Part shown: positions 35,290 to 64,000 of the stretch, one piece after another
How positions within the stretch are numbered: position 1 is the first letter of the stretch
Layout of the letters: every line of letters starts with the position of its first letter
NCBI GenBank assembly: GCA_027605045.1
Contig: JAQFWX010000020.1
Span: forward strand, 124,001-188,000
Direction of reading: 5' to 3'
From: Phallus indusiatus
Lineage: Eukaryota > Basidiomycota > Agaricomycetes > Phallales > Phallaceae
Length of the DNA stretch: 64,000 nucleotides
Translations under genes and position numbers: made by a program
The notes under the pieces: model-generated
The model's input: only the letters and a program-made list of their open reading frames with translations
What the model was told of the DNA's origin: nothing
Database searches by the model: none

Positions 35290-37960
35290 ACCTCCTGTTG
35301 AAAGCCTTCGCCTGGCCTTGTCGTGTAATTGTCTGTTGCTCCTTTCATTCTTAAATCCCAGGGAAGATGAACAAGGCCGTGATGTTTTGGATATTCGTAA
35401 ATCTTTTCATATAAGTCGGTCATTTTCTAGAGCACTAAAATTAGCACGAGAATCACAATTCACAAACAAGAGGTGACATACCGTGCAATATTTTGACAAG
35501 CACTTGTTTAGATATGATATATGTTCTTCGGAGACGGGGCGTAAAACTGCAATGCTGCGAATCACAGCCAGCGTGCGAAAACAGTGGATAACTGGTGAGT
35601 TGCGGGGTAAAATGTTCACTAAACAGAAGATGACACACTGTAAGATCATCAGTTACGGGAATGTCTGCGATAAATACATTGAGACTTACTTTTAAAATGT
35701 CACGGTAACTGTTGCCGTCGGCGAAGTCTTTCTCAGTGACGTTAATGAAATGTTTCAAAGTTGGCCATCTCGGAACCTCCCGCATACTGAGGATTTGAGA
35801 AGCAGAGAAAAAGAAAATCTGAAATAAACACTCACTTTGATGACAACTGTCTTCGTTCCTGTGCATTAAGAATAGTGTCCTTATTACTAATGAGCAAGCC
35901 CCATTGATGTTTGTCCCATTCACCAGAGTCCATTTCGTGCAGCATGTCGTACGAGTAGGCTAAATATGGATCGGAATTTGCAATCTTCCAGAATGCGATC
36001 TATGTGCATCATGAGACTTTTTTCCCTGGTATGCAAATGGCTCACCTTTATTAAATGTAGGCCCGTGTCACACAGAAGCTTCTCAGCGGCACCAGCGGAT
36101 AAAGTCAGTGCTTTTTTGTACACGGCTTTCATGGCAGATTGGGTCCAAAGTGTAACTGGTGCAGTTAGGTTTGTGAAGGAATGGCGGTGAGCCAGACAGC
36201 GTGGACAAGCGTAATTCGCCTGGGCACCTCGTGTGCCACATAAACAGTAAGCTTCTTCTTTATCAATAGCTTCTATCAAAATCCCAGGGTGAAGGATCCG
36301 GGTGTGCTCATCTCCACATGTAACGGCTTCACCATTGTGCGAGCGTTTACGAATGGGGCGCCAAATGGCATGGTGAACATCTTGGTACACTTCTCTTCTG
36401 AACTTGCCAAGCTCCACAAGTGAGACGGAATCATCTTCATCTTCCGTGGTGCGTCTATCTATTGTTACCTGAGCCAAAGCTGTGAGACCAAGTGCAAAAT
36501 CTAATAAAACTGGTGGCTTACCACGGGCATGTAGCCAATTAGAACACCTCCACCATTGCCTGACCCATTCCTGATGGCAGCTGGGAGGAAGCCGGCACGC
36601 AGGATTATAGGATGCTTGGTGACAGTTTTGGCAACGCTGCTTTTATCCAGCCATACATGTAATGGCGTGAAACAATGTGGGGTACCGTCACGCTCCGCTT
36701 GAGGCAAAGTATCCTAACCATGTCAAATATAACAGTAAGTGGATGTTAATAATCGTAGTGATACAATTAATTGCTAACCTGAATGTCCCACCATCGTTGT
36801 CCGCTGTTGAGTTCATCATAGAGTCGCGTTGATCGGTTGTGCCGGTGAAGTGTTTTTTGGACAGGATACCACATAATGGAATCAGCCAAACTTGGGTCCG
36901 TAACTATGTCTAGGATCCATTCCCATGGATCTCGGAATTGAAATGTAAATCTATATTCTTTGTTCTTGAAATAGCGCACAACCGTTCCCTCTTGAAACTG
37001 AAACTAGGTGAATACTGAACTAATGGCAAAGGATTAGTATTGACTTACCTGAACACTAAAACAGCGAGTCGCCTCCAATGACTGGTCATATTGAAAGAGC
37101 GTGCGTATTGTCATGTAACTCCCGGATGCCCAACGTCCATTAATGCCTTCTAGAATTTCTTCAATCGTTTTACGATCCATACGCTTGGTTACTGTCATCC
37201 GTGTAAACTCAAAATCCACACGTGTTCGGAATGGGGCCCATGGCTTGGGCTGGGGGTCTGGCTCATTGAGACGAGCATTTTGTGGCACGTCATCCATGGC
37301 GGGGGTCGGTTCATCCAGAGAAATGATGGTTGGTGGCTGGCCACTATGAGGGTGATAGGAAATCTTAATAAACTCTTGGATCGGAGGGTGGTCGCTAGCA
37401 TTATCCACACCGTTCATGTCGTCTTGTTCTTCAGACTCGGGTTCGTCTTGTTCTTCCGATTCGGGTTCATCTTGTTCTTCCGATTCAGGCTCATCATGCC
37501 GTTCAAACTCGACATCGTCTAGCCAATATCATGAGCTTATGATAACTGTGCCGGAACCAACTATCTTACCAGTAATCATCTGAGTACGCGCCTGCGAGGA
37601 TACTGGCTCGATTTGGAGCATTTGCGCATGCATTGCATCAGGAGCAACGGATTGATGATTTTTCAACTGTGCTCGGGCTTGCGCAGATCTGGTGACGGGT
37701 TTGTGCTGGTGAGGACGTAGTTTACATGCATCGATATGTTTGTCGGAACGTCGTTTATTGATGGGTTTGGCACAGAAACCACACCATCGCTGATTGTGGA
37801 GAACTCGGACATCAAGGGGCTGGTCAGTCCACATATGAGCATATACTAAAAACTAATTAAAACCGTTAAGTAGCAGCATACACAAGAGTGCACAAACCAT
37901 TAATTTTTGCACGATCTCATAGGTGAGCGAGTTTGAACTTGGAGTTGTGAAGTGTTGCGA

Positions 37961-45677: not shown

Positions 45678-47407
45678 ATGACATATCAAAAGGACAATCT
45701 AGAATCTTTGAATTTTCATTCAGCAAGTGCTGTACTGCCAGAATTTGGCTCTCCTGATTCCCCGACCCTTTCAACCGACGACTCGGACTCTCCTAATCTA
45801 GGCTCTTCTGTTCAAGACTCCTCTGTTCGAGACGCTTTTATTTTACTCTCTCTTCCCCCTCTTGGTTCACTCCCTTCCCTTCCCCCACTACCTACCCTTT
45901 CTCTTCAACTGCCTCATGCTCAAGAACCTCCCTCCACAATACTAGGTAACTCTCCACCCCTTCTCACTAACAATTTTAAACTGACTCCTTCCTGTCAAGA
46001 TTCCTCATCATCACTACCTAGCCCCCCTCCCTCTTCGTCAATTTCTTTAACTAACTCTCTCGTTCAAGGTCCCCTCTCATCGTCTCTTGTTCACATCAAC
46101 GTCTCCACATCATCGCCCCTTGCGTCTAGTACTTCCTCACAGTCAAAGGATATTTCAAATTCAATAACATCGCTCATAGCTACCACGCTCGCGACTACTA
46201 CTGTCAATGCGCCTACTCCCGATGATTTCACCAGCCTGAGGACTGCAACTACAGATCTATCAGTTTCATCGACTAGCAGCACCTCTGAGCCAGGCTCTTC
46301 TAGTGGCAGAAATAATCATAACCTGAATCTGGTAGTAATTTTGATAATCGGCGTTGTGATCGGTGTTTTGGGGTTTATTATTCTCGGTGTATTATTTTTT
46401 CTTTTCAGAAGATGGCGACGACAACGAATTCGAAGCAATTGTGGCTTGCGACATACGAACGAGCTGAGGCTCAATCCTGAGTCTTCGGAGTCTGGCGAAC
46501 TTACTGGCTCGGAACGCCGACTCGTCCAAACTTCAGGACTAACGACGGACAATGGCACTATACCAGAATCGGAATCGAGACCATGCAACGTTGATGCCAG
46601 GGAGAGCGGATTTATACGTGATCTGCTACTAATGCCGCAGCGAAACCGTCATGCGATTCATGCCGGTCCAGTAGCGCAAGCACCGGTCTTTGGAATACCA
46701 GTAGCAGTTACTAGTAATAATAGGAGTAATTCGGTCGGTAATTCACAGTCAACTCCAACTCCAGCAATAATAACCCCGTTCCACCTACCATCGAGAAGTG
46801 TCCTTCAACCAGTTACAAACCTCAAGGTGGAAGAAGCTGACAGTTCAGCTCCGGCGAGCCTTCACGATGCTGTTCATGAGTCAAACCCCGAATCTCGACG
46901 CATTTCCCTACAATCTACCAATTGTGATCATATTCATTTCATTGGTCACGGTGTTCAAAGCGACACTCAAAGTATCATTGGCAATTCAGGTTTACACCAG
47001 CCTGATGAGCCTAGTAATCTTATTAGGCTGTTGCCCGCACCTTCCCGGGTCGTTCGAGTGCCACATCTATCAATACTTACAGATTCAGCTGCTGAGCCAG
47101 CGCCATTAGTGCCAGCCTTGTTGACCGAGACCCCCAACTTGGACTCTACCACTTCCCAGGTGATGGTGAGTGAATACCTCAAAACATACGGCTCAAACCA
47201 ATAAAATACCCGTTATAACGCTTTGAATTCTATTGATAGCTGCCTACAAATACCGACTTGGACTCGGGTCTGAGGTGGCATGCGGCAGATAGTGGTGTTC
47301 GTCTGGGCGGCGGGATTCTGCTGTTATACGACGACAACAGTGGAAAAAATTTCGAGTCGTCTTTGCAGTCAAAAGATAGATTGCCACCTGTGTATACTCG
47401 TAGTTGA
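45678..47407 (+). CDS. F5: Ser/Thr-rich single-pass membrane protein (intact, longest)
   Basis: Two exons (45678-47159, 47240-47407), about 550 residues. The first ATG in frame is at 45678 (MTYQKDNLESLNFHSAS); an upstream in-frame TTG is not used here. The outer region of about 210 residues is Ser/Thr/Pro-rich with runs such as SSSLPSPPPSSSISLTNS. The membrane helix is VVILIIGVVIGVLGFIILGV, followed by RRWRRQR. The cytoplasmic tail is about 250 residues with LLLMPQRNRH and ASLHDAVHESNPESRR blocks. The last exon is RWHAADSGVRLGGGILLLYD...LPPVYTRS. No frame defect; it is the best reference copy of the family. A surface sensor or adhesion-like role is inferred from architecture only. Confidence 0.78.
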
Positions 47408-47524
47408 AAAAATACATAATCCAATATCTCAGGCTTTGGCACAACGCGCATACATCAGTTAACCCAGTGCCAGTATTGACATGAATACTAAAATAATCAA
47501 GTGCACATTGTTTATTTTTTAACA

Positions 47525-47850
47525 AATAATAGAAAATTTGATGGTTGTGCGAACAGGCTACACGGAGATTAGTAAGCGAAGGTTATATGCGCCGTTCCTT
47601 ACGGCTAGGTGATTCTGAGATACTAAAAGGCTATACTTTCTATTTTTCACCTTTTGTCTCCCCTTCATTTCACTTTTATTTAAAATTCACAGTTCTTATA
47701 TTTTATCTTTCCAATCATCTTTAGTTCCATTTCCCTGGAACATATATTTACAAACTGTATATAAAAAACAAACCTTTTCGACTACAATAACAACAACTTT
47801 TATACCCTCATTATGATTTCCCTCTGAACACACAACACTGGTTCCCTTTC
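47525..47850 (-). repeat. Interspersed repeat, inverted partner of 22266-22585
   Basis: Reverse complement of 22266-22585. It runs from ATTTGATGGTTGTGCGAAC to about CCAGTGTTGTGTG on the other strand. No coding content. The two copies now flank F4, its 19 kb insertion and F5. Confidence 0.7.
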
Positions 47851-48260
47851 GCTCCCTGACCACTCCTGTTGCGCGACCATCAAATTAAAGATATATTTAG
47901 GCGAAAACTTGTAAGAAGAGGAACAAGAAGTGAGTTGGAGGCTAAGTTGAGAGCAGCGCTTATATGAGTAACGAGATCCACCTTTTCTTCTGCGTCTTCG
48001 TACGTCGTCATGGTTGTTCTGGCTTTTTTTTAGGCTCAGGTAGGATGAGGTCGAAGCATTTGACCGTGTCTGAGAGCAATGATGATGACGATAATTCAAC
48101 ACCACTGGCAGCAGCTGCACCAGTAGCCGGTCCATCCACTATCCACCACCCACCCGCAACGTTACTTTCGTTCAATCATACACCATTACAAACGCTTCTC
48201 CGAATGTCAGGCCATCAACGATGCATCATGCATCATCACCCGCTGTCCTCTCCGGACTTT

Positions 48261-48266
48261 AGATTG
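48261..48266. repeat. 6 bp target duplication, left (AGATTG)
   Basis: AGATTG directly before the left terminal repeat; the identical AGATTG is at 56074-56079 directly after the right one. Confidence 0.85.
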
Positions 48267-48306
48267 TATGGTGTACGGAATGGCTCAGCTGATTTCCGAT
48301 GACTCG
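48267..48306 (+). repeat. Left terminal inverted repeat, 40 bp
   Basis: Begins TATGGTGTACGGAATGGCTC. It includes TGGCTCAGCTGA, which resembles a pol III A box; a related GGCGGAATGGCCTAGTTGG occurs 170 bp further in. Confidence 0.9.
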
Positions 48307-48440
48307 CGTAGTCCGGCTATGCATACGCGAACATCGGCAGACGCGCCGTGGGGATAGTTTCGGCAGATATTTCAAGGAATATCTGAAAATGTCAAATTTT
48401 TGTCGAAACGGTCATATGGTCTGGAAGGGCAACCTTTGTG

Positions 48441-48520
48441 TAGGCGGAATGGCCTAGTTGGATGTAGCTTACATATACATACTGCTACTTGGGAAGCAGT
48501 AGTTCGAGTCCAGCTACTGA
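48441..48520 (+). ncRNA. tRNA-like / SINE-like sequence
   Basis: TGGCCTAGTTGG fits a pol III A box and AGTTCGAGTCC fits a B box about 55 nt later. CTGCT...AGCAG between them could form an anticodon-like stem with an 8 nt loop. A T-rich TTTCTTTT stretch follows. The acceptor stem and T stem do not pair properly, so this is not a functional tRNA as read; it is more likely tRNA-derived. Confidence 0.35.
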
Positions 48521-48632
48521 CTTTCTTTTAAAAAAATTCAGATATAAAATTTTTTTTATTCACACAGGGCTTAATTACATATTCATACTATACAAGTCTT
48601 ATTTGCACCAGTTTTCGCTGGGTGTCTGTCAT

Positions 48633-48669
48633 GGGGGTGGCTGGGGTGGCTGGGTGGGGGGTGTGGGGG
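48633..48669 (+). other. G-rich tract, possible G-quadruplex
   Basis: GGGGGTGGCTGGGGTGGCTG continues into GGTGGGGGGTGTGGGGG: at least five runs of three or more G within 37 nt, about 370 bp upstream of the dioxygenase start. Confidence 0.6.
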
Positions 48670-49039
48670 TGTCTGTTGGCTGCTCCTTCAGGCAGTGCCA
48701 CCCTACTGCTTCTCTATCCTAGAAGCTGTGTGTACAGCTTCCTGCCAATGTCGCTGGTCCCAGACAGACATTGGTCAGGATCAGGCTAGAGCTGCAGCTG
48801 GGGTGCATCTGCAGTGGTGGTGGTGGGGTGGAAAAAAAACTTCGCGCGAAGGTTCAAATTCAAACTCAGACGTCGCGCACATAACCTACTCCAATGCTGC
48901 CACACCACACATCAAAGAAAGCACAAATCACACAGAGACGAGTTAGACAATGTAAGTACTGATTAAATATCATGCTTATTATTTTAATTGGTGTGTAGTT
49001 TTAGAAAAAATATCCGCAGAGACTTCTCTAATCCATGAT

Positions 49040-50605
49040 ATGGAGCGAGGCCATATCTCTAGTGACACTCTCGCCACCATCGCTACTCTCGCCAGTTCTG
49101 CGCCTGCCGGTGTACCAAAAATACGAAAGGTAGGTATTAGTTTGGTTTGGTTTATATTATAGAAATTGACACGGTTGTTAGCTGCCAGACTTACTGGCTA
49201 TTCTCCCACAACTACCGAAAGGCGAGTTGTATGACATTTACGAAGCCTATAACAAGCGAAGAAAGCAGGAGAAAAAAATTTTTAATGGGGATCGTCGCGA
49301 CTTTGTATGTAATTTTAATTACTATCTATATCATTTTAAAAGCATTTTCTAGCGTAAAAATCTTGGGCTTGGGAAGCCTCCCCCTTCCATTTCCGAACTT
49401 TATACCAGTGGCATATCGCAACTGACTCGCGATCGTCTCGGTACTTCACTAGAACCAGGACATATTTATCTCCGTGAACCTGGGTCTGAGGGGCTGAAAG
49501 CAAAACCATCGTCAAAAGCAGGACCACCTCCTCAGTATCGTGTGATCGGGAAGTCTGATGAATGGCTTCGTATACCAGTAGGTAGGAGTGTTATTATTAC
49601 AAATAGTCAAGGTATGTTTAGTATTGCTCAGATTAATTAATTTCTATTCTACTAATATTATTCCAGGCGATATTGAATTAGCAGTTTTGCGAGGCCTGTC
49701 AGAGGATTGCGATGTTTTAGACAGTGTTAATTCAGTAATTTCGGAGGCTGTTGCAGATCGAAATAATGTCCGAGTAAGATTTTTATACTATTACATCATA
49801 TATTTTGCTTTTCTTATCGTTATACAGCCCACCCATGTCGGTACTATGATTCAGGCAGGGTATAATGCTGGCCCCCGTCACATACACCCTCGTGTATTTG
49901 GTCTAGTCAATAATTTCCGACAGCGAAAGACACTTACTGATAGCGATAAGCAATCTCAAGACGACCATATTATTGGTGTTTTTTCGCTCTTCTGGCATCT
50001 TATTTGTTCCCATGCCCCAGCCGAAATCATAAATCATGTGCAAGCAAAGCTAGATGATTCGGAGATGCCTGAAATGGCTGGTAAATATACTGAAGGTGTG
50101 TCATTATTATTTTTCATTGGGACTGCTAGGTAAACTTTTCCAGATGTTTTTGGCTACGAGTTTACGATGGCTGGTCAAACATTCAAATTCCCCTATGTGA
50201 GTCGTGCACCATCGGAAGGTTATTTAGCACAAGGCTATACTTCGTGAGTTAGACTCGTATTCTTTTTGAATATGTCTAACAAAATAAAGCCCAATACATG
50301 TCGATAAATGTTGGGCTGACTGGGCCTTCGCCTGGCAAACCAAACATTTATCGGCAGATATATCTGGTCCTACAGGGGGAAATTTTGTTGACGTTGGCTT
50401 AAGGGTGATAGTTGAGTCAAGTTCGGATACATTACTGATGTTTAAACCCGATTTTCCGCATGCGACTACACTTTCTCACTCGTATGTTGAGCGACTCGGA
50501 ATCGTAATATCATTTTCAGTCCATATCAAGCAAGCCTTTGATCATGCAGTATATAGGTTCGAAAATGAGCTATCACCTGTAGAATATGATGAAGAATATG
50601 AATAG
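49040..50605 (+). CDS. 2-oxoglutarate/Fe(II) dioxygenase-like protein (TET/JBP-like candidate)
   Basis: About 420 residues in seven short exons, all introns GT-AG. MERGHISSDTL is the chosen start; it stays in frame with LPDLLAILPQLPKGELYDIY after the first intron. The middle holds RPTHVGTMIQAGYNAGPRHI and WHLICSHAPAEIINHVQ. The C-terminal third carries the catalytic set: IHVDKCWADWAFAW gives HxD (about 318-320), GGNFVDVGLRV is the core strand, DTLLMFKPDFPHATT gives the distal His (about 373), and VERLGIVISFS gives the Arg for 2-oxoglutarate (about 384). This order matches double-stranded beta-helix dioxygenases and looks like the basidiomycete TET/JBP-like group, which oxidises methylated bases and is known to be expanded and transposon-associated in these fungi. 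The subgroup is uncertain. It is the first gene of the 7.8 kb element. Confidence 0.65.
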
Positions 50606-50630
50606 TTGATATATATATTTTTACTAAAAT

Positions 50631-52400
50631 TTATTCATCATCTGAGAGTTCGTAATCACCATCAACACCATCGGGAACCTCGTTATCTGTTATATCTGCG
50701 AAAATATCGATATCGTCAAGAAAATCGATATCAGTATATCCAGCCACTATCTCCTGAGGTATACCTTGAACTAAATTTGCTGGTGCTAAATCCTCAAAAA
50801 GTTGGATTTCGTCGCTCTCCCCCCCATTCCACCCTGACTCTCGAATGTTATAAGGCAATTCAAGGATAGAGGTAACATTGTTAGTGAATATTTGTTTCAT
50901 CGCTATAAAAATAGTCCAAAGTGAGAGCTGAGTGACTTCTGGAGATTCTATAGTAGCCCAGACTCGTTCAGCATCGGTATGAAATTCGGGTGGAACGAGT
51001 TGAAAAACTTCATGATCTGGAGGTGCATATCGTAATCGCATAGCCTCAATTAATTCAATAGGCACTAGTATCTATAATGAAATAGTCTGAATCGGGAGTA
51101 ATTAAAATAGCTTATATAAATTACCTTGAAGTCGGTACTGTTAAACTTCTCAGGCTCATTGAAAATCAGATCGGGAATACCATGTGGCAGAACTTTGTTC
51201 ACATCTTTACGACGAGCAACTGAATTACGACGAATACGATAGATGTCTAGTTGTTGCTGAAAATATGGGATTGCTAGCCATCGCCAAAGTAACCTATTTG
51301 GGCTTATATAGAGATCCAACTTTGATTCAATCACGACTTACTCATCTATTGGGTTTAAAGAATCATATAGGTTTTCTTCATATCCTTGTTCCATTACAGT
51401 CTCGAAACCTGCAATCCAGTATCGTCGAAATAAACTCCATTCAATCTCAGGCTTGATATTGGTATGGTTTCGTTTGAATCGGTGCTGACTAGTACCTGCG
51501 AGTAGCGAATCCAAATGGTGACGAATACTAGTCTGTGCATTCGCTATTCCATAATTTTCAGTACCACCATCGCTTTGGGTAATTAAAGGAACACCTAAAT
51601 ATTGATGTCAGAAATTGGATCGTGAATAATTTACATACATACCTCCAAACTCAGTCACAGTATCTAAAAACCATCCGCATATGAGTCGTGGATTAGAATT
51701 TGTCCACCAAATTTTCAGCCAGAGTATTTTGCCACTGAATGGTTCGACACAAACATGTAACCATAACCCAAATCGTTTCCACTTATCATGCTGATCTACA
51801 CTCCATATATGGTTTACTCCAGCAGCGATAAATTGTTTTCGTACAAACTTCTTTCTCTGTCTTCGTTGTAGATCATCTGGATGAAATTGTCTGAACCAGG
51901 TATAAATACGATCTCTATATTTATTTATGTAAGAAAATACTATGAACTATAATGAGATAAATTACCGAGGAATAGCTATATTGCGAGTAATTCGAACATG
52001 CTGTGCAATTGTTCTTGGCCCATAGTTTGGATACTCGGCTCGTACTGATTCAAGTATTTCTCCCAACTGAGTATCGTTCAAATTTTTGCTCTGTTTACGA
52101 CTGGTATGAAGTTGCCATTCCTCTCGTCGTCGCTTGATAGTTGCTAAGCTACTCACAAAGAGGTAAATTGGTTAATGAATATATAGACTAAATTTTCCGA
52201 CTCACCTCAAAGAATACCTCTGTTTGTCATATTTTCCATCCATGTAAGTCAAAATTTTAGGATTTGATAGCCCAAGAGTTTGGACAGCATATTCCAGATG
52301 AGGCCGAAGTATTTCATCAGGTACTTAACTCATAAGTTGGTTTATTGATATAGAAGTTATAAAACTTACAGGGACTATATTGATTGTTGTGACGAGACAT
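50631..52400 (-). CDS. Integrase-type DDE transposase
   Basis: About 510 residues in seven exons, starting MSRHNNQYSP at 52400. Regions: N-terminal helical part with KRRREEWQLHTSRKQSKNLN and YPNYGPRTIAQHVRITRNIA (helix-turn-helix-like). Then the retroviral-integrase fold: IWSVDQHDKWKRFGLWLHV (first Asp, about 154), GVPLITQSDGGTENYG (second Asp, about 214) and NIKPEIEWSLFRRYW (Glu, about 256, giving a DD~42E spacing). The C-terminal domain contains VRRRKD-type basic sequence and a very acidic end (DFLDDIDIFADITD). It resembles the rve-like integrase core proteins common in agaricomycetes. As the only DDE protein inside the terminal repeats, it is the likely transposase. All three catalytic residues are present, so it may be active. 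Confidence 0.78.
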
Positions 52401-52586
52401 TTAGATCACAGTCTTTCAGAATGTAAATTAGAGATAGTAAAAGTGCTGTCGTAAGTTTTTTCTCTCGGGGATCAGTCGCCGAATTTTTTCTGACTTCAGT
52501 TCTATTCACAAACTTAACTCTCATTTATTGTTTTTTACCCTAATCTCACTCTAACAAAAGTCATTCTTTTATTCAATCTTCAAAAT
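52401..52586. promoter_or_regulatory. Bidirectional promoter region of transposase and kinase genes
   Basis: 186 bp between the two divergent start codons. TATTCACAAACTTAACTC and TCATTTATTG are AT-rich core candidates; no clear TATA box. Sharing of regulation between the two genes is inferred from the spacing. Confidence 0.45.
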
Positions 52587-55364
52587 ATGGCACCACAAAT
52601 TTTTGCTCCAATTACCAAACCAGGGGTTCAGCCATGTTCTCGCTGTAAAAAGTCATGCGAAAGCACACAGCTAAAACCGATTCACGATTCCAAGGGTGGA
52701 TCCTCCCTTTATTGCTGTATGGAATGTGTCCTTTATTATCTTCAGAAGGCAGATGCATATTTGAAAAGTATAATACATACTTTTCTCACTTTTTAACCCT
52801 ATCTTGACAAATATTTTAGATGACGACACTTCGCAGGATTCAGGTTCTGCCTCACAACGAACAGCTCCTAGTGTTCCTGTAGATCAGGCTGCAATAGAAC
52901 AAAATACTGCTATATCACAAAGAACTGGTACATAGTCTTATTCAATCATAACATACTATATTGTTAACTTCTAATCATCTAGTTTCCAACCATCGCCCTA
53001 TTGCTCACCTGGGGCCCACGATGTACTCTCAAAACTTTTACCCGAATGGAACTCAGCTTCAGGGAGTTTCAGTACCTGCCTTGTCAACCCCTCAATATCC
53101 AATGAATCAACAACAACAGTCGGTCAACATCGCTTCCAATATGCCCAGTGGCTATACGAGCTCGCATCTGAGCTTTTCCAGTCGTTTTGCCAAAGCTTTA
53201 TCTCAGCCATATATTCAACAAACAGTAGCAATAAAAGCACATCTTGGTCGGTTTAGTGGAAAGAGGCTGAGTGTTATTGAGGTAAATAAATTAATCTCAA
53301 TAGACCTATGTTAATTTAATTTGTTTTCAATAAGGATATTGTCGAGACTATAACAAATGTCGATCCGCATATTGGTGTTCGTGATCTTAAGGAGAAAGTT
53401 ATTCTCGCTCTAGATCCTAAGGTCCGAAAATATCTCAAAGGCTACCATCTCGATCTTCATACACTGGAACTCAAACAAAACAATTTTGCGACACTCAGTC
53501 CCCCAGCTGATCGGTTGGATAACAATGCTATATATGAGAATTTTATGCGAGAGGGATCTCGTGGAAAACCTCCTAAATTCGTAAAGGGCACGCTTGATTT
53601 ATGGTTATATTTGGAAAAGGATCTGCATGCTGCTATTATTCGTCATCGTGAAGAAATCGAAAGCGAAGAAATTATCAGCCATTTTCATATGAATCCTATC
53701 CAATCGGAGCTGGGAATATCAAGAGAAGGTTCACATTTTTATACTGTTGTTAATAACCAACCATCAGAAGATGTTTGTTCTTTTCAATTTCGTAAATCAT
53801 TACTACAACTGATACCAATTTATACTTCTCTAGCCAGTATTACCATCTCATTCTAGGCCATCCCATTCAAATCCAGCAAATTCAGAATCGTCAGTGACAA
53901 GATCAGCCTATAATCGAGGGAAACGAGCTATCGCACACTCTCCACAGAAAGACCCCAAGGAGAAAAGAAAACGAACTCGTAAAGTAAGAGATAATACTAT
54001 AGTAATTAAATGACAGCTGCATTAACAATCGCTTTAGTCTAAACGACCTGTTGATCGCGAAGATACTTCAACTGAGTCAGAGTCAGAACCCTCAGCTCCA
54101 AGTCATCGAAGAATGAGCCCCAAAGATGATAGACCTGGATATGACGAAGAGGAAATTTCGGGAAATGATGGGCCAGAAAACGACAAGCTAGAAAAGGATG
54201 AGCTAGAAGTTGACGAGTTAGAAAACGATGAGCTATTTCCTGATGAAGATGAATCGCGAAATTCTCGTCGGGTCTCGTCTCTGACTATAAGCCTTGATCG
54301 TCTCAAGACAAGTGTTTATAAACAAGCTCAACAAGTCTCAACTAATGAGGCTCAATCCGAAAGTAAGAGACTGTTTATTTTATAAATTAGTATAGAACTT
54401 AACTTTGGCAGTTGATTCTCGTCTCATTGTTGTATCGGTTCATATCCAACAATATCTATCAATCGAGAAGCTTTTGGATTTGAAACTAGACGAACTACCT
54501 ATCAAATCCGATAACCCTTTTCTTGGAAAACTCGATGTTACCTTTTTACGACAAATTCCTGATCGTCTTGAAGGATCGTTCAAAACTGCCCACTGTGGCA
54601 AACTTATATCCCAGTCTCATTTCAATGGCGATTTGAATAACGATGAGTTTCCTTGGTCTGAGAACATTTGTATTAAAAGACCATATCGACTAAATGAAAA
54701 GACCAAAAGAAAAAAGGTTCATATACCCCATGAAGAGCATCGACTCGTGACCCAAGAGCTCAAGACGATGATATGGTCGAATGCCCTGTTAAGGCATGCC
54801 TATGCAACTATCGAAGAAAAAATCCGCGACAAAGGCGAGCCTGGCTTCGAGATCCCTCAGTTACGATTCGTAAAGAGTGCCATGTTGATGAACCAGGCAA
54901 ATGCAGGTGGTACTTTTATCGCTGAAGAATTTATTACAGGAGCTTTCTGCAAATACATTAATAATCTCTCGGCCCTCCCTGTCAAAGATCTCAACGACGA
55001 TCAGAAGTATATTGCAACTTTCTTGACATCTGTCCAACACTTGATTTGGATCATTACCAATCATGCTATGCTCGTCACTGATTTTCAAGGTATAGCCTAT
55101 TCGCTCTATTAGAATTGTTTTAATAATAAATCTTCAGGGGCTGGAACTTTGCTAACCGATCCTCAGATAATCACACCATCGTGAGACTTTATCGATTTAT
55201 TCCTTAGAGCGATATAATTATAAACTGCATACTAATTTTGTAGCGATTGGGACCAAACTCTTTTCAGTGGTGGCAATATCGGGACTTCTTTGCAGACTTT
55301 TGAGCTTGAACACGAATGTAATCAGTTCTGTAAATTCCTTGATTTGGAACCAATAGGGGAATAA
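52587..55364 (+). CDS. Cys-cluster protein with C-terminal alpha-kinase domain
   Basis: Multi-exon gene. N-terminus has PCSRCKKSCES...LYCCMECVLYY, a likely zinc-binding cluster. The centre includes AKALSQPYIQQTVAIKAHLG and a long acidic Glu/Asp-Leu stretch (GPENDKLEKDELEVDELEND). The last about 270 residues form an alpha-type (MHCK/eEF2K-like) kinase domain: RLEGSFKTAHCGKL, RFVKSAMLMNQ, FIAEEFITGAFCKYINN, LVTDFQGAGTLLTDPQIIT, the Gly-rich FSGGNIG and the zinc-binding HECNQFCKFLDL. Alpha-kinases phosphorylate Ser/Thr in helical regions, here perhaps chromatin or transposition proteins (guess). One junction near 53.80-53.87 kb does not keep frame with the obvious GT-AG pair (possible frameshift or unusual site). 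All later exons splice cleanly, and the stop is TAA at 55362. Confidence 0.72.
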
Positions 55365-56033
55365 ATACTGAAGGTAAAGTAATTTACTTGTTACATGATT
55401 TTTGAATCGTGAATATTATTTCTCCCAAAATAACAGGTTTTATTTCCATAAATTTTATTCAAAAAATTTTTTGCGAATTTCTCTTATATAAACACTCTCA
55501 TTATCCTTTTATATCTCTTTCAACCAAATCTCACTCGTTATCTATTCTTCTTCGGCTAATACTCTCACTAAACTTCACTTCGTTTTATTCTCGTTATTTT
55601 AATCTCCCAATTCCTCACTATTGTGGAATTATATCCAATTATATTCTCAGTACTTTAAATCTTCGAATTAAAACCTTGCTGTCATAATCATACACTACAA
55701 TATTCGTTCCTTTCTATTCTACCTACCCTTATGATTTTCATCTTCGTAGAATTATACCCCCTTTTAACATGGTTTATTTGATCTGTAGATATCCTCCATT
55801 TTGTTTCGATTCTCAGTTTCGTAGAATTATACCCTCTTAAAATATATTTTACTTCATGTATATTGTTCTCGTTTGATATTTTTGTCAAAAGTGTCTATCT
55901 TTATCGATCAATGTCGTGTGTGTATTATTTTTAGTACTACTGTACTACTTCCTTTGTATAATCCTAAAGATAATATCAATATCTCAATGTAATCCGACAG
56001 GGATAATATGCCGATGGCCACCCGACCCTGTGC
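55365..56033. other. Right non-coding part of the 7.8 kb element
   Basis: AT-rich, no gene. A GTAGAATTATACC-type motif recurs (about 55618, 55747, 55829), the last two within copies of about 30 bp. Presumably subterminal repeats or 3' region of the kinase gene. Confidence 0.45.
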
Positions 56034-56073
56034 CGAGTCATCGGAAATCAGCTGAGCCATTCAGTACACCATA
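56034..56073 (-). repeat. Right terminal inverted repeat, 40 bp
   Basis: Reverse complement begins TATGGTGTACTGAATGGCTC and matches the left repeat at 39 of 40 positions; followed directly by the AGATTG duplication at 56074-56079. Confidence 0.9.
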
Positions 56074-56079
56074 AGATTG

Positions 56080-56849
56080 CACCACATCACCGACGCGGCC
56101 CGTCTGACCCCCTTTCAAGCACGCCTTCAAAGGTTCACAGTCTAAAGCGCGACGAATCCATCCGAATCCGACTGTTATATCTAGAATGAATATTGTTACC
56201 AACGCCGCGTCGCCGCCTTCAACCTCGGTGGAAACTCGTTGTACTGAGTGCCCTGATCCTGTTATCTCCTTGTCAACTGTGAAATGGTAATCTTCGCACT
56301 CTTGATACCTTTTCAGGCTTCCTAGATCAATACCGCCAGCTTTGTTTTTTTTAAATTCCGCTGTGTCGTCTGGCAGTTGCTTCCCAACGCCCGCTAGTAC
56401 TGACGCCCACACGCTTTCCTTTCTCCTTTGCATTTGCACCTTCCTTTCTGAATCCTACCATCGTCGCAGTGCTCGTGAAATGCGTGTAAGATGTGGATGA
56501 TCTTGGAGTGAGCATGCTTTCCCTTTTCTTTCATCAACATTTTTTCAAATTATAATGCCCGTACTCATCGGAGACAGAACCTCATAATAAAACGCAATTC
56601 GTCTCTTGATACAAATTGAGATCGCTTTAAAATTAATGAGTTTTGATTGTTGCGTGTACTCTCACATTGACCAGCTTTTTTCTCCTATTTTCAAATTACA
56701 GCCACTGTACAGGAATCCAGGCCTTGTTGGATAAATAAATGGAAAAAAAAAAGACAAAAATCGCCTCGTCTGTTTTAACTCCTCTCGTTAGTCATAACTC
56801 AAAACTTATAATAACCCTCCCTCTTCCGAATCGTTCATCTCTAGCTTCT
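56080..56849. other. Flank of the 7.8 kb element; possible interrupted minus-strand frame
   Basis: A minus-strand frame from 56439 (MQMQRRKESVWASVLAG...) runs into the element end. If element and one AGATTG copy are removed in thought, it continues in frame into the left flank (…VVQSKVRRGQRVMMHDAS) and stops at a TGA near 48210. No family recognised. The second half is the F6 promoter region. Confidence 0.35.
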
Positions 56850-57657
56850 ATGTCATTCACAAATGTCGCTCAAAGTCGTGAGGAAGATGAACTTTCGAGA
56901 ATTTTTGCTTCTTTGGCAAACTTTACTCCAAACCCAGTTGCCACGCTCACAGCATCCAATAACAATGGTGTCTCGGCTACTTTGACAATCTTTGAGCCTT
57001 TTAGTATTCTAGCCCCTAGTGTAACTAGCTCCCCCCTGAATTTTTCAACTGCGTTTCCTGCCACAAATGTCGACGTTTCCTCAGATAGTATCCCCACGCC
57101 AAATAATTCTGAATCGATAGCGCCTTTTACCACCACAATTAGGACGACTAACACGGTGATTATTGACACTGGATCAGATTCACACAATAGTCAAAATCTC
57201 GGGATGGTGATTGGTACCGTCATTGGCACCATCGTGTTTATCCTCGTTCTTCTCGGGGGTAGTTTTTTCTTTTTCAGACGACGTAAAATGCGGCGACAAC
57301 AACGCAGCCTACCAGTGCAGTTCGATGAGTCCGCATCTTCGAAGGGGAGTCTTCATGACGGCTCAACATCCAACTGTTGCACAAGCCTCGGTACCAGTAC
57401 CGGCGTTGTTGACCGCGCTAGCCCCATAGCCAAATCAAAGGAGTCTACGTCCACATCCTCGTCCTCGTCCTTTACAACATCGGTGAGTCTTGAATAAATA
57501 ATTCAATGAAAAAAAAAGTGGCACTAACGCGCATGGGGGATTTTCCTTCTTGTAGTTGTCTAATACTGGCAGTTACCCGGAGAAATGGCATGCAGATGGC
57601 GGTATTCATTTTAGTAGGGGGGCTTTATTGTACGACGACGGGAAAAAACCAGAATAG
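56850..57657 (+). CDS. F6: Ser/Thr-rich single-pass membrane protein, last exon cut short
   Basis: Exons 56850-57482 and 57556-57657. Start MSFTNVAQSREEDELSR follows a leader like that of F4 and F5; an upstream in-frame ATG (about 56741) lies in that leader and is less likely. Thr/Ser-rich outer part, membrane helix MVIGTVIGTIVFILVLLGGS with FFFFRRRKMRRQQR, and a short tail. The last exon begins KWHADGGIHFSRGALLYDDG but meets TAG where relatives read NSEWSL, so the final about 20 residues (SKD...PPVYTHN in others) are lost. Otherwise open. Closest to F7. Confidence 0.65.
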
Positions 57658-63133: not shown

Positions 63134-64000
63134 ACGAGGCGGCGTCCCGACGCCTGTAGCTTCGACTAATGACGCTTGTAACTTAGAAAAATCGAACCGA
63201 GGGCGACGATGGAAAAGAAGGCCATTTATCGAGCATGGCGCACTCGGATGTTCGCGGTGGAACTCCTTAATGAGATCCGGGGCTGCAATATTCGACTCGG
63301 GTTCCCACTGATCGTGCTCGGGACCATAGCCTTCCCAACGCACCTTATACTCGAGTCGTCTCCGGAAGACACGACTGTCCAAAATCCGTTCCATGACATA
63401 GTGTTCACCGTCGTCTCTGACCTCAGGAGGTGGTGGAGCCTTAACGCGACGGCCCGGGATCGTATCTTCAACCTTTGGACGTAGCTTCCCGACATGGAAG
63501 ACAGGATGGAGTCTTGACATCGACAGTGGTAGATGTAGCCTATATGCATGGGATCCGACCTTACTGATTATCGGAAATGGGCCTAGGTACTGATGCGACA
63601 ATTTGGCGGAAGGTCTGGTAGTGCGGATGTCGCTCGAATCGAGGTATACCTTGTCGCCAACCTTGTATTCAGGTGCTGGGATGTGTTTCCGATCGTAATA
63701 CTTGGCCATCTCGTCCTTCGACCTGGCTATAGCGGCCTTGGCTTCCTCTATCGTCGACTCCATACGCGTCTTGAACTCGTTGACAGATTCGATCTTCGAG
63801 TCGGCAACCAGCGGTTCGAATCCCATACGAGGATGTCGTCCAGTGTCGAGTTCAAACGGTGTCGCGCGTGTAGCTGAGTGTACGTGGTTGTTATATGCGA
63901 ACTCAGCCAAGGGCAGTATCTGGTCCCAGTCATCCTGTTGCTCAGAGGTGAAGAGTCGTAGGTACTGTTCGACTTCTGCGTTGACGCGCTCTGTCTGACC
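63131..64000 (-). CDS. Ty3/Gypsy chromovirus pol, integrase end and chromodomain (partial)
   Basis: Open to the window edge (enters as GQTERVNAEVEQYLR) and stops at 63131. Integrase C-terminal part: WDQILPLAEFAYNNHVHSAT, PFELDTGRHPRMG, then YKVGDKVYLDSSDIRTTRPS, KLSHQYLGPFPIISKVG and YRLHLPLSMSRLHPVFHV. A chromodomain follows (ERILDSRVFRRRLEYKVRWE with HDQWEPESNI), which in chromoviruses directs integration to marked chromatin. No frame defect in the visible part, so the element may be complete beyond the window. Confidence 0.92.
   Translation of the reverse strand, partial: GQTERVNAEVEQYLRLFTSEQQDDWDQILPLAEFAYNNHVHSATRATPFELDTGRHPRMGFEPLVADSKIESVNEFKTRMESTIEEAKAAIARSKDEMAKYYDRKHIPAPEYKVGDKVYLDSSDIRTTRPSAKLSHQYLGPFPIISKVGSHAYRLHLPLSMSRLHPVFHVGKLRPKVEDTIPGRRVKAPPPPEVRDDGEHYVMERILDSRVFRRRLEYKVRWEGYGPEHDQWEPESNIAAPDLIKEFHREHPSAPCSINGLLFHRRPRFDFSKLQASLVEATGVGTPPR

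What the first reader, a model, noticed from the sequence alone, without database searches (positions are those of the whole stretch)
48267..56073. Complete 7.8 kb DNA transposon carrying a dioxygenase, an integrase-type transposase and an alpha-kinase
Seen: 40 bp terminal inverted repeats with one mismatch, a perfect 6 bp target duplication (AGATTG), and exactly three genes between them, all essentially open. Known: DDE integrase cores move DNA; TET/JBP dioxygenases accompany other (KDZ) transposons in basidiomycetes; alpha-kinases are expanded in mushrooms. Inference: these three functions form one mobile unit not matching any element class I know, with base modification and phosphorylation perhaps controlling transposition or host silencing.
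Basis: partly seen in the sequence, partly recalled or inferred. Interest (0 to 1): 0.93.

Follow-up and report, generated by a model that had tools for sequence, protein, structure and literature searches.

The report
IS3EU transposon with dioxygenase and kinase

Summary
In detail: a 7,807-bp element (48267-56073) with 40-nt inverted repeats (one mismatch), a 6-bp duplication (AGATTG) and three intact spliced genes: a TET-like dioxygenase (+), a DDE transposase (-) and an alpha-kinase (+). The other haplotype (C128) has the empty site with one target copy, so the insertion is real and polymorphic. The claim of an unknown class does not hold: ends TATGG..CCATA, 6-bp duplications, PF24764 core and a divergent alpha-kinase fit the IS3EU superfamily, and Kojima 2025 (PMC12730594) already describes TET-positive IS3EU elements with an alpha-kinase. 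What differs: there TET lies between transposase and kinase, in rusts and one truffle; here TET lies outside that pair, in a fungus that looks agaricomycete. The same order occurs at a second complete element (C42, 7,423 bp, duplication CAAGTG) and at C184 (ends not found). The dioxygenase lacks the published hallmarks of the AG and PE types; its TET membership rests on motif and on sub-threshold Pfam matches of relatives. Most likely this is a cut-and-paste transposon whose dioxygenase counters methylation silencing; the kinase's role is inferred only.

The parts
48261..48266 (.). target-site duplication, left copy (AGATTG)
   Evidence: single copy (AGATTA) in the empty allele on C128
56074..56079 (.). 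target-site duplication, right copy (AGATTG)
48267..48306 (+). left terminal inverted repeat, begins TATGGTGTAC
   Evidence: the left 134 bases match in full at 7 further places
56034..56073 (-). right terminal inverted repeat, ends GTACACCATA
48267..48823 (+). left non-coding region shared in part (338-557 bases, 84-90% identity) with the 7 other copies
49040..50605 (+). TET-like 2OG-Fe(II) dioxygenase gene, 7 exons, 420 aa; HxD at residues 319-321, distal His 373, Arg 384
   Evidence: exons 49040-49129, 49182-49304, 49353-49611, 49667-49773, 49828-50095, 50144-50243, 50290-50605; conserved residues
50631..52400 (-). DDE transposase gene, 7 exons, 488 aa, PF24764 core; candidate catalytic D151, D210, E251
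52401..52586 (.). 186-bp divergent intergenic region between transposase and kinase; inferred shared promoter
   Evidence: coordinates; promoter function is inference
52587..55364 (+). alpha-kinase gene, 9 exons, 780 aa; N-terminal Cys motif, acidic low-complexity middle, PF02816 at 638-770
55365..56033 (.). right non-coding region up to the right inverted repeat; its last part (from about 55972) is shared with other copies at 81-83% identity

Best explanation
This is a complete, probably autonomous cut-and-paste DNA transposon of the IS3EU superfamily in a mushroom-type basidiomycete. Shown by sequence: matching ends, a 6-bp target duplication, an empty allele, three intact genes with conserved motifs, and related copies with the same ends. 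Inferred mechanism: the DD40E transposase binds the 40-nt repeats, cuts the element out and joins it to staggered cuts 6 bp apart. The short copies (about 2-2.7 kb) were moved in trans by this or a related transposase. The dioxygenase oxidises 5-methylcytosine laid on the element by the host and so keeps its promoters active. The alpha-kinase, transcribed divergently from the transposase, phosphorylates the transposase or a host chromatin factor to permit or time transposition; this last step is the weakest. Judged probabilities: IS3EU transposon 0.95; dioxygenase acts on DNA bases 0.65; kinase regulates transposition 0.4.
For: Ends TATGG..CCATA and 40-nt repeats. Six-bp duplications at 7 of the 8 copies examined and at the second family (C42). 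Empty site with one target copy, collinear on both sides. Transposase matches PF24764 over cut-off; both D are kept at C42, C144 and C184, and E251 in all 6 other loci aligned over that exon. Alpha-kinase over cut-off with TDFQG..LTDPQI and HxCNxxC motifs (their catalytic meaning is recalled). Dioxygenase HxD, distal His and Arg invariant in the 7 rows of A1. Relatives match PF12851 Tet_JBP (E 0.0021, 0.0035) and PF20515 Tet-like (E 0.0032, 0.029), all under cut-off. The three genes recur in the same order at C42/C122 and C184. Published class and silencing proposal: PMC12730594.
Against: The window dioxygenase has no Pfam match of its own to an oxygenase (its only listed match is an unrelated family at E 0.072). 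One of the relatives matches an unrelated nuclease family (PF15637, E 0.0046) about as well as the Tet-like ones, so those matches are weak evidence. No PDB match alone or as a profile. No hhalign link to the genome's own Tet_JBP-like locus. No Repbase IS3EU transposase was at hand for a tree. No expression, methylation or activity data. No second copy close to this one was found by the transposase search (next best match 60%, apart from a 50-residue decayed piece at C173), so current mobility is inferred from the polymorphic insertion. Alpha-kinase matches also occur at 8 places without a detected transposase of this family.
Confidence: 0.85

Rival explanations
1. A new superfamily of DNA transposon, not IS3EU.
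For: The dioxygenase lies outside the transposase-kinase pair, unlike all TET-positive IS3EU families in PMC12730594; no tree with known IS3EU transposases could be made.
Against: Ends, 6-bp duplication, integrase-core transposase and opposite-strand alpha-kinase all match the published IS3EU descriptions.
Confidence: 0.04
2. The dioxygenase and kinase are passenger genes of host benefit or chance capture, with no role in transposition.
For: No activity data; TET genes are described as passively transferred between transposons (PMC12730594); the short copies lack all three genes.
Against: Both genes are intact here, and the trio recurs in the same order in families whose transposases are only 52-60% identical.
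Confidence: 0.2
3. The oxygenase is not a 5mC oxidase but makes another base modification or acts on RNA or protein.
For: No cut-off match to Tet_JBP; lacks the Asp of AG-type and the HxE of PE-type; CMD1, listed among TET relatives, makes another product (PMC12730594).
Against: The sub-threshold matches of 4 relatives include Tet_JBP or Tet-like families; the transposon-borne dioxygenases described in PMC12730594 are TET/JBP proteins.
Confidence: 0.25
4. Chance inverted repeat or assembly artefact around three unrelated host genes.
For: None found.
Against: Empty allele, 6-bp duplication, same ends at other places, second complete element.
Confidence: 0.01

Closest known systems
TET-positive IS3EU transposons of Pucciniales and Tuber indicum (Kojima 2025, PMC12730594)
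   Same: 6-bp duplications, repeats over 30 bp and TAYGG..CCRTA ends (as given for the Pucciniales families), transposase and alpha-kinase on opposite strands, TET/JBP gene aboard
   Different: There the TET gene lies between transposase and kinase; here it lies beyond the 3' end of the transposase, tail to tail with it. Host looks agaricomycete; the paper's Agaricomycotina results name five other lineages and no IS3EU (its Table S1 not read). HxD with no Asp at H+11, so neither PE nor AG hallmark.
IS3EU/GingerRoot superfamily (PMC10045372, passages)
   Same: TA..TA termini, usually 6-bp duplications, integrase-like DDE transposase
   Different: No kinase is mentioned in that paper (the word occurs 0 times); a dioxygenase was not looked for in it
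Kyakuja/Zisupton/Dileera (KDZ) transposons with TET/JBP
   Same: Transposon-borne TET/JBP dioxygenase in basidiomycetes
   Different: Other transposases (from the paper); 7- or 8-bp duplications
CcTET of Coprinopsis cinerea (AG type)
   Same: 2OG-Fe(II) HxD..H core; mushroom host; transposon link
   Different: The G and D residues given for CcTET (H+5, H+11) are W and A here by plain counting, without a structural alignment

Membership tests
IS3EU | TA..TA termini, here TAYGG..CCRTA | tested here: met
   TATGG..CCATA in the window element and C42
IS3EU | 6-bp target-site duplication | tested here: met
   7 of 8 copies of this family (L035 lacks it), plus C42
IS3EU | terminal inverted repeats over 30 bp | tested here: met
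   40 nt, one mismatch
IS3EU | integrase-like DDE transposase | tested here: met
   PF24764 37.3 bits against cut-off 26; D151, D210, E251
IS3EU | phylogenetic place among Repbase IS3EU transposases | not testable with these tools
   No Repbase sequences held; the protein database was switched off when tried with the dioxygenase
TET-positive IS3EU as described in PMC12730594 | alpha-kinase in opposite orientation to the transposase | tested here: met
TET-positive IS3EU as described in PMC12730594 | TET gene between transposase and kinase (reported for all families there; a regularity, not the superfamily's definition) | tested here: not met
   Order TET, transposase, kinase at the window, C42/C122 and C184
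TET/JBP dioxygenase | HxD/E..H iron-binding residues in a 2OG-oxygenase core | tested here: met
   H319, D321, H373, R384 invariant in the 7 rows of A1; also at C184 by reading. The core fold itself is not shown
TET/JBP dioxygenase | match to PF12851 or PF20515 over cut-off | tested here: not met
   Window protein no match; 4 of 7 rows sub-threshold
TET/JBP dioxygenase | fold related to CMD1/CcTET/NgTET | tested here: inconclusive
   Only the last exon was folded; mean pLDDT 44.5; no fold search made
PE-type TET | HxE motif | tested here: not met
   HxD (hallmark)
AG-type TET | Asp at H+11 | tested here: not met
   A330 by counting without a structural alignment (hallmark)
PU-type TET | conserved residues of the paper's figure 7 | not testable with these tools
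   Figure not held
Alpha-kinase | PF02816 over cut-off | tested here: met
   76.4 bits against 21.3
KDZ transposons | 7- or 8-bp duplications | tested here: not met
   6 bp (KDZ lengths)

The most novel reading that the evidence does not exclude
Mushroom IS3EU elements assembled the transposase, TET-like and alpha-kinase trio independently of the rust elements: they hold a fourth TET-like type (neither AG nor PE, perhaps not PU) at a different position and have kept the trio together across several diverged families, which implies that oxidation of DNA bases and phosphorylation are standing parts of this transposon's life cycle.
Probability: 0.4. Interest if true: 0.5.

Novelty: new variant of a known kind. 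Interest (0 to 1): 0.38.

Why it matters
It gives an intact, polymorphic TET-like/alpha-kinase transposon with an empty allele in the same assembly, a useful natural system to ask whether transposon-borne demethylation counters silencing. It also suggests that the same three functions came together in IS3EU in more than one gene order, which would point to a functional need rather than chance capture.

Tried and rejected
One search was a badly built pattern search; it only hinted, by paired places, that the assembly holds two haplotypes. The left-flank search was swamped by a high-copy repeat of about 344 bp; the joined-flank search solved it. PF24764 over the whole genome found nothing, not even the window's own gene, because exons are too short one by one; no absence is concluded. 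PF02816 did not list the C42 kinase that one search found, so its list is incomplete. Folding the last dioxygenase exon alone gave mean pLDDT 44.5 and was dropped. PDB searches with the dioxygenase, single and profile, found nothing. The genome's own Tet_JBP-like locus at C113/C162 could not be linked to this dioxygenase by hhalign (score 14.3, while 30 shuffles reached 19.9). A tRNA-like stretch in the left end was looked for with ARAGORN and Rfam: no tRNA match. C184 ends were not found in the pieces held. Trees of 8 dioxygenase and 5 transposase rows: few rows, a long C184 branch and a C144 transposase row composed of two places; no claim of gene exchange or of co-inheritance is rested on them.
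Full report
Observation. The window holds a 7,807-bp element at 48267-56073. Its 40-nt ends are inverted repeats with one mismatch, and AGATTG flanks it on both sides. Three genes fill it. Using GT..AG introns I could splice all three into open frames without a stop: a 420-aa dioxygenase-like protein on the + strand (49040-50605), a 488-aa transposase on the - strand (50631-52400) and a 780-aa alpha-kinase on the + strand (52587-55364). The splice sites are my own reading; no transcript was available.

Insertion shown. The two host flanks joined (347 nt) were searched in the window's own assembly. There were three matches: two are the flanks themselves, and the third, C128:365279-365602, runs across the junction (query 10-347, 75%). 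Aligned, it reads ..CTTAGATTACACCACATC.. with one copy of the target and no element. The locus matches the window in order on both sides (pieces within 46422-47540 and 56074-57570), so I take it as the other haplotype and the insertion as polymorphic. That the 67.2-Mb assembly holds two haplotypes is my inference from paired places.

Relatives with the same ends. A search with the left 134 bases gave 14 matches: 8 full-length left ends (the window's and 7 others) and 6 repeat-only ends. Six of the 7 others are short copies of 1,983-2,745 bp and one is 8,947 bp; the last aligns with the short copy L039 plus inserted DNA. Of the 8 copies including the window's, 7 have a perfect 6-bp duplication; L035 has none. 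At E up to 0.01, none of the 7 others carries a piece of the three genes inside the element (one weak 27-residue match in L036 lies outside its element). L040, L041 and L042 showed one end only in the stretches fetched.

Second family. The transposase search gave 15 exon matches, the dioxygenase search 34, the kinase search 6. At C42 all three genes lie in the same order and strands, in a 7,423-bp element with ends TATGGTGTAC and duplication CAAGTG. C122 carries a very similar copy in mirror orientation; the C42 dioxygenase and the C122 kinase each look frame-broken. C184 has dioxygenase, transposase and kinase matches in the same order, but I did not find its ends. At C1/C177 a decayed dioxygenase and transposase lie tail to tail, with no kinase match. 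At C144 transposase and kinase are adjacent while the dioxygenase match lies about 37 kb away and further transposase pieces lie 7 kb off; I do not count it. Further dioxygenase relatives (C121/C162, C195/C133, C1/C162) have no detected transposase of this family nearby.

What the proteins are. Transposase: PF24764 (integrase core) 37.3 bits against 26. D151 and D210 are kept at C42, C144 and C184 but are N in the decayed C1/C177 copies; E251 (not E253) is kept in all 6 other loci aligned over that exon, giving DD40E. Kinase: PF02816 76.4 bits against 21.3, with the LTDPQI and HxCNxxC motifs (their meaning is recalled) and a Cys-rich N-terminus, of which a similar pattern can be read in C42. 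Dioxygenase: no Pfam match of its own to an oxygenase. In the 7 aligned rows HxD, distal His and Arg are invariant, and 4 of the 7 rows give sub-threshold matches, two to Tet_JBP and two to the Tet-like family PF20515. Against this, one row also matches an unrelated nuclease family at similar strength (E 0.0046), and PDB searches found nothing. I call it TET-like, not TET.

Host. DUF6533 (PF20151) has 150 scored matches, all over cut-off, out of 973 candidates; from recall this family is expanded in Agaricomycetes. A Plavaka transposase piece is also in the window. I read the host as an agaricomycete; this is inference.

Comparison with print. Kojima 2025 (PMC12730594; abstract, results, part 1 of the discussion and term passages read) reports TET-positive IS3EU from seven Pucciniales species, with 6-bp duplications and TAYGG..CCRTA ends, and from Tuber indicum. 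It states that all TET-positive IS3EU families have the TET gene between transposase and alpha-kinase, which are in opposite orientations. So the class is known. The gene order here is different, and the paper's Agaricomycotina results name no IS3EU. Its figures and Table S1 were not read. A full-text search for alpha-kinase, transposon, TIR, transposase and fungi together returned that paper alone. Searches with IS3EU showed 20 of 35, 20 of 58 and 10 of 90 papers; by title and start of abstract no other row describes such elements. IS3EU itself is listed in mushrooms (PMC12411881, PMC8955403; one passage each), and PF02816 appears in a domain table of a wheat-rust comparison (PMC5295586; one passage). 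PMC10045372 (passages) gives the superfamily's TA..TA ends and 6-bp duplications. Of PMC8889193 only the outline and the listed start of its abstract were seen.

Mechanism. Cut-and-paste movement is supported by ends, duplications and the empty allele. Anti-silencing by the dioxygenase is the published proposal for such genes and is inferred here. A role of the kinase in licensing the transposase or host chromatin is my inference. Transposase and kinase start 186 bp apart, head to head, which would allow a shared promoter. Trees of the two proteins have too few rows to add to this.

Verdict. A real, polymorphic insertion; an IS3EU transposon; a variant in gene order, probable host class and dioxygenase type. 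Interest is moderate because the class was described in 2025.

Noticed in passing
window 47539-47882: A 344-bp repeat with TGATGG..CCATCA ends lies left of the element. Of the 40 scored matches (59 candidates), one is the window itself, 22 are 95-97% and 17 are 82-87% identical. By eye all 7 places printed (window, L024, L025, L027-L030) have 4-bp duplications (AATT here), and the repeat is absent from the empty C128 allele: a second polymorphic small transposon.
   Followed up: partly
window 48440-48525: A stretch in the left end looks tRNA-like by eye (A- and B-box-like words, then a T-rich run) and is partly kept in the short copies; ARAGORN and Rfam find no tRNA.
   Followed up: partly
window 35923-36642 (-): Open frame matching Plavaka transposase PF18759 (39.1 bits, cut-off 26.3).
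   Followed up: no
window 63134-64000 (-): Open frame with PF24626 Tf2-1-like SH3 and a chromodomain; probably the end of an LTR-retrotransposon integrase.
   Followed up: no
L038 430-9376: 8,947-bp copy with the same ends and a 6-bp duplication but none of the three genes: a short copy enlarged by inserted DNA.
   Followed up: partly
C137:116169, C129:2462263, C63:55308, C120:28323, C120:657169, C130:66514, C111:1107190, C128:419511: Eight further alpha-kinase matches without a transposase match of this family nearby; host genes, relics or other IS3EU families.
   Followed up: no
C113:3973-4332 and C162:1992421-1992780: A different Tet_JBP-like locus (28.6 bits, under cut-off) not linked to the transposon's dioxygenase.
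   Followed up: partly
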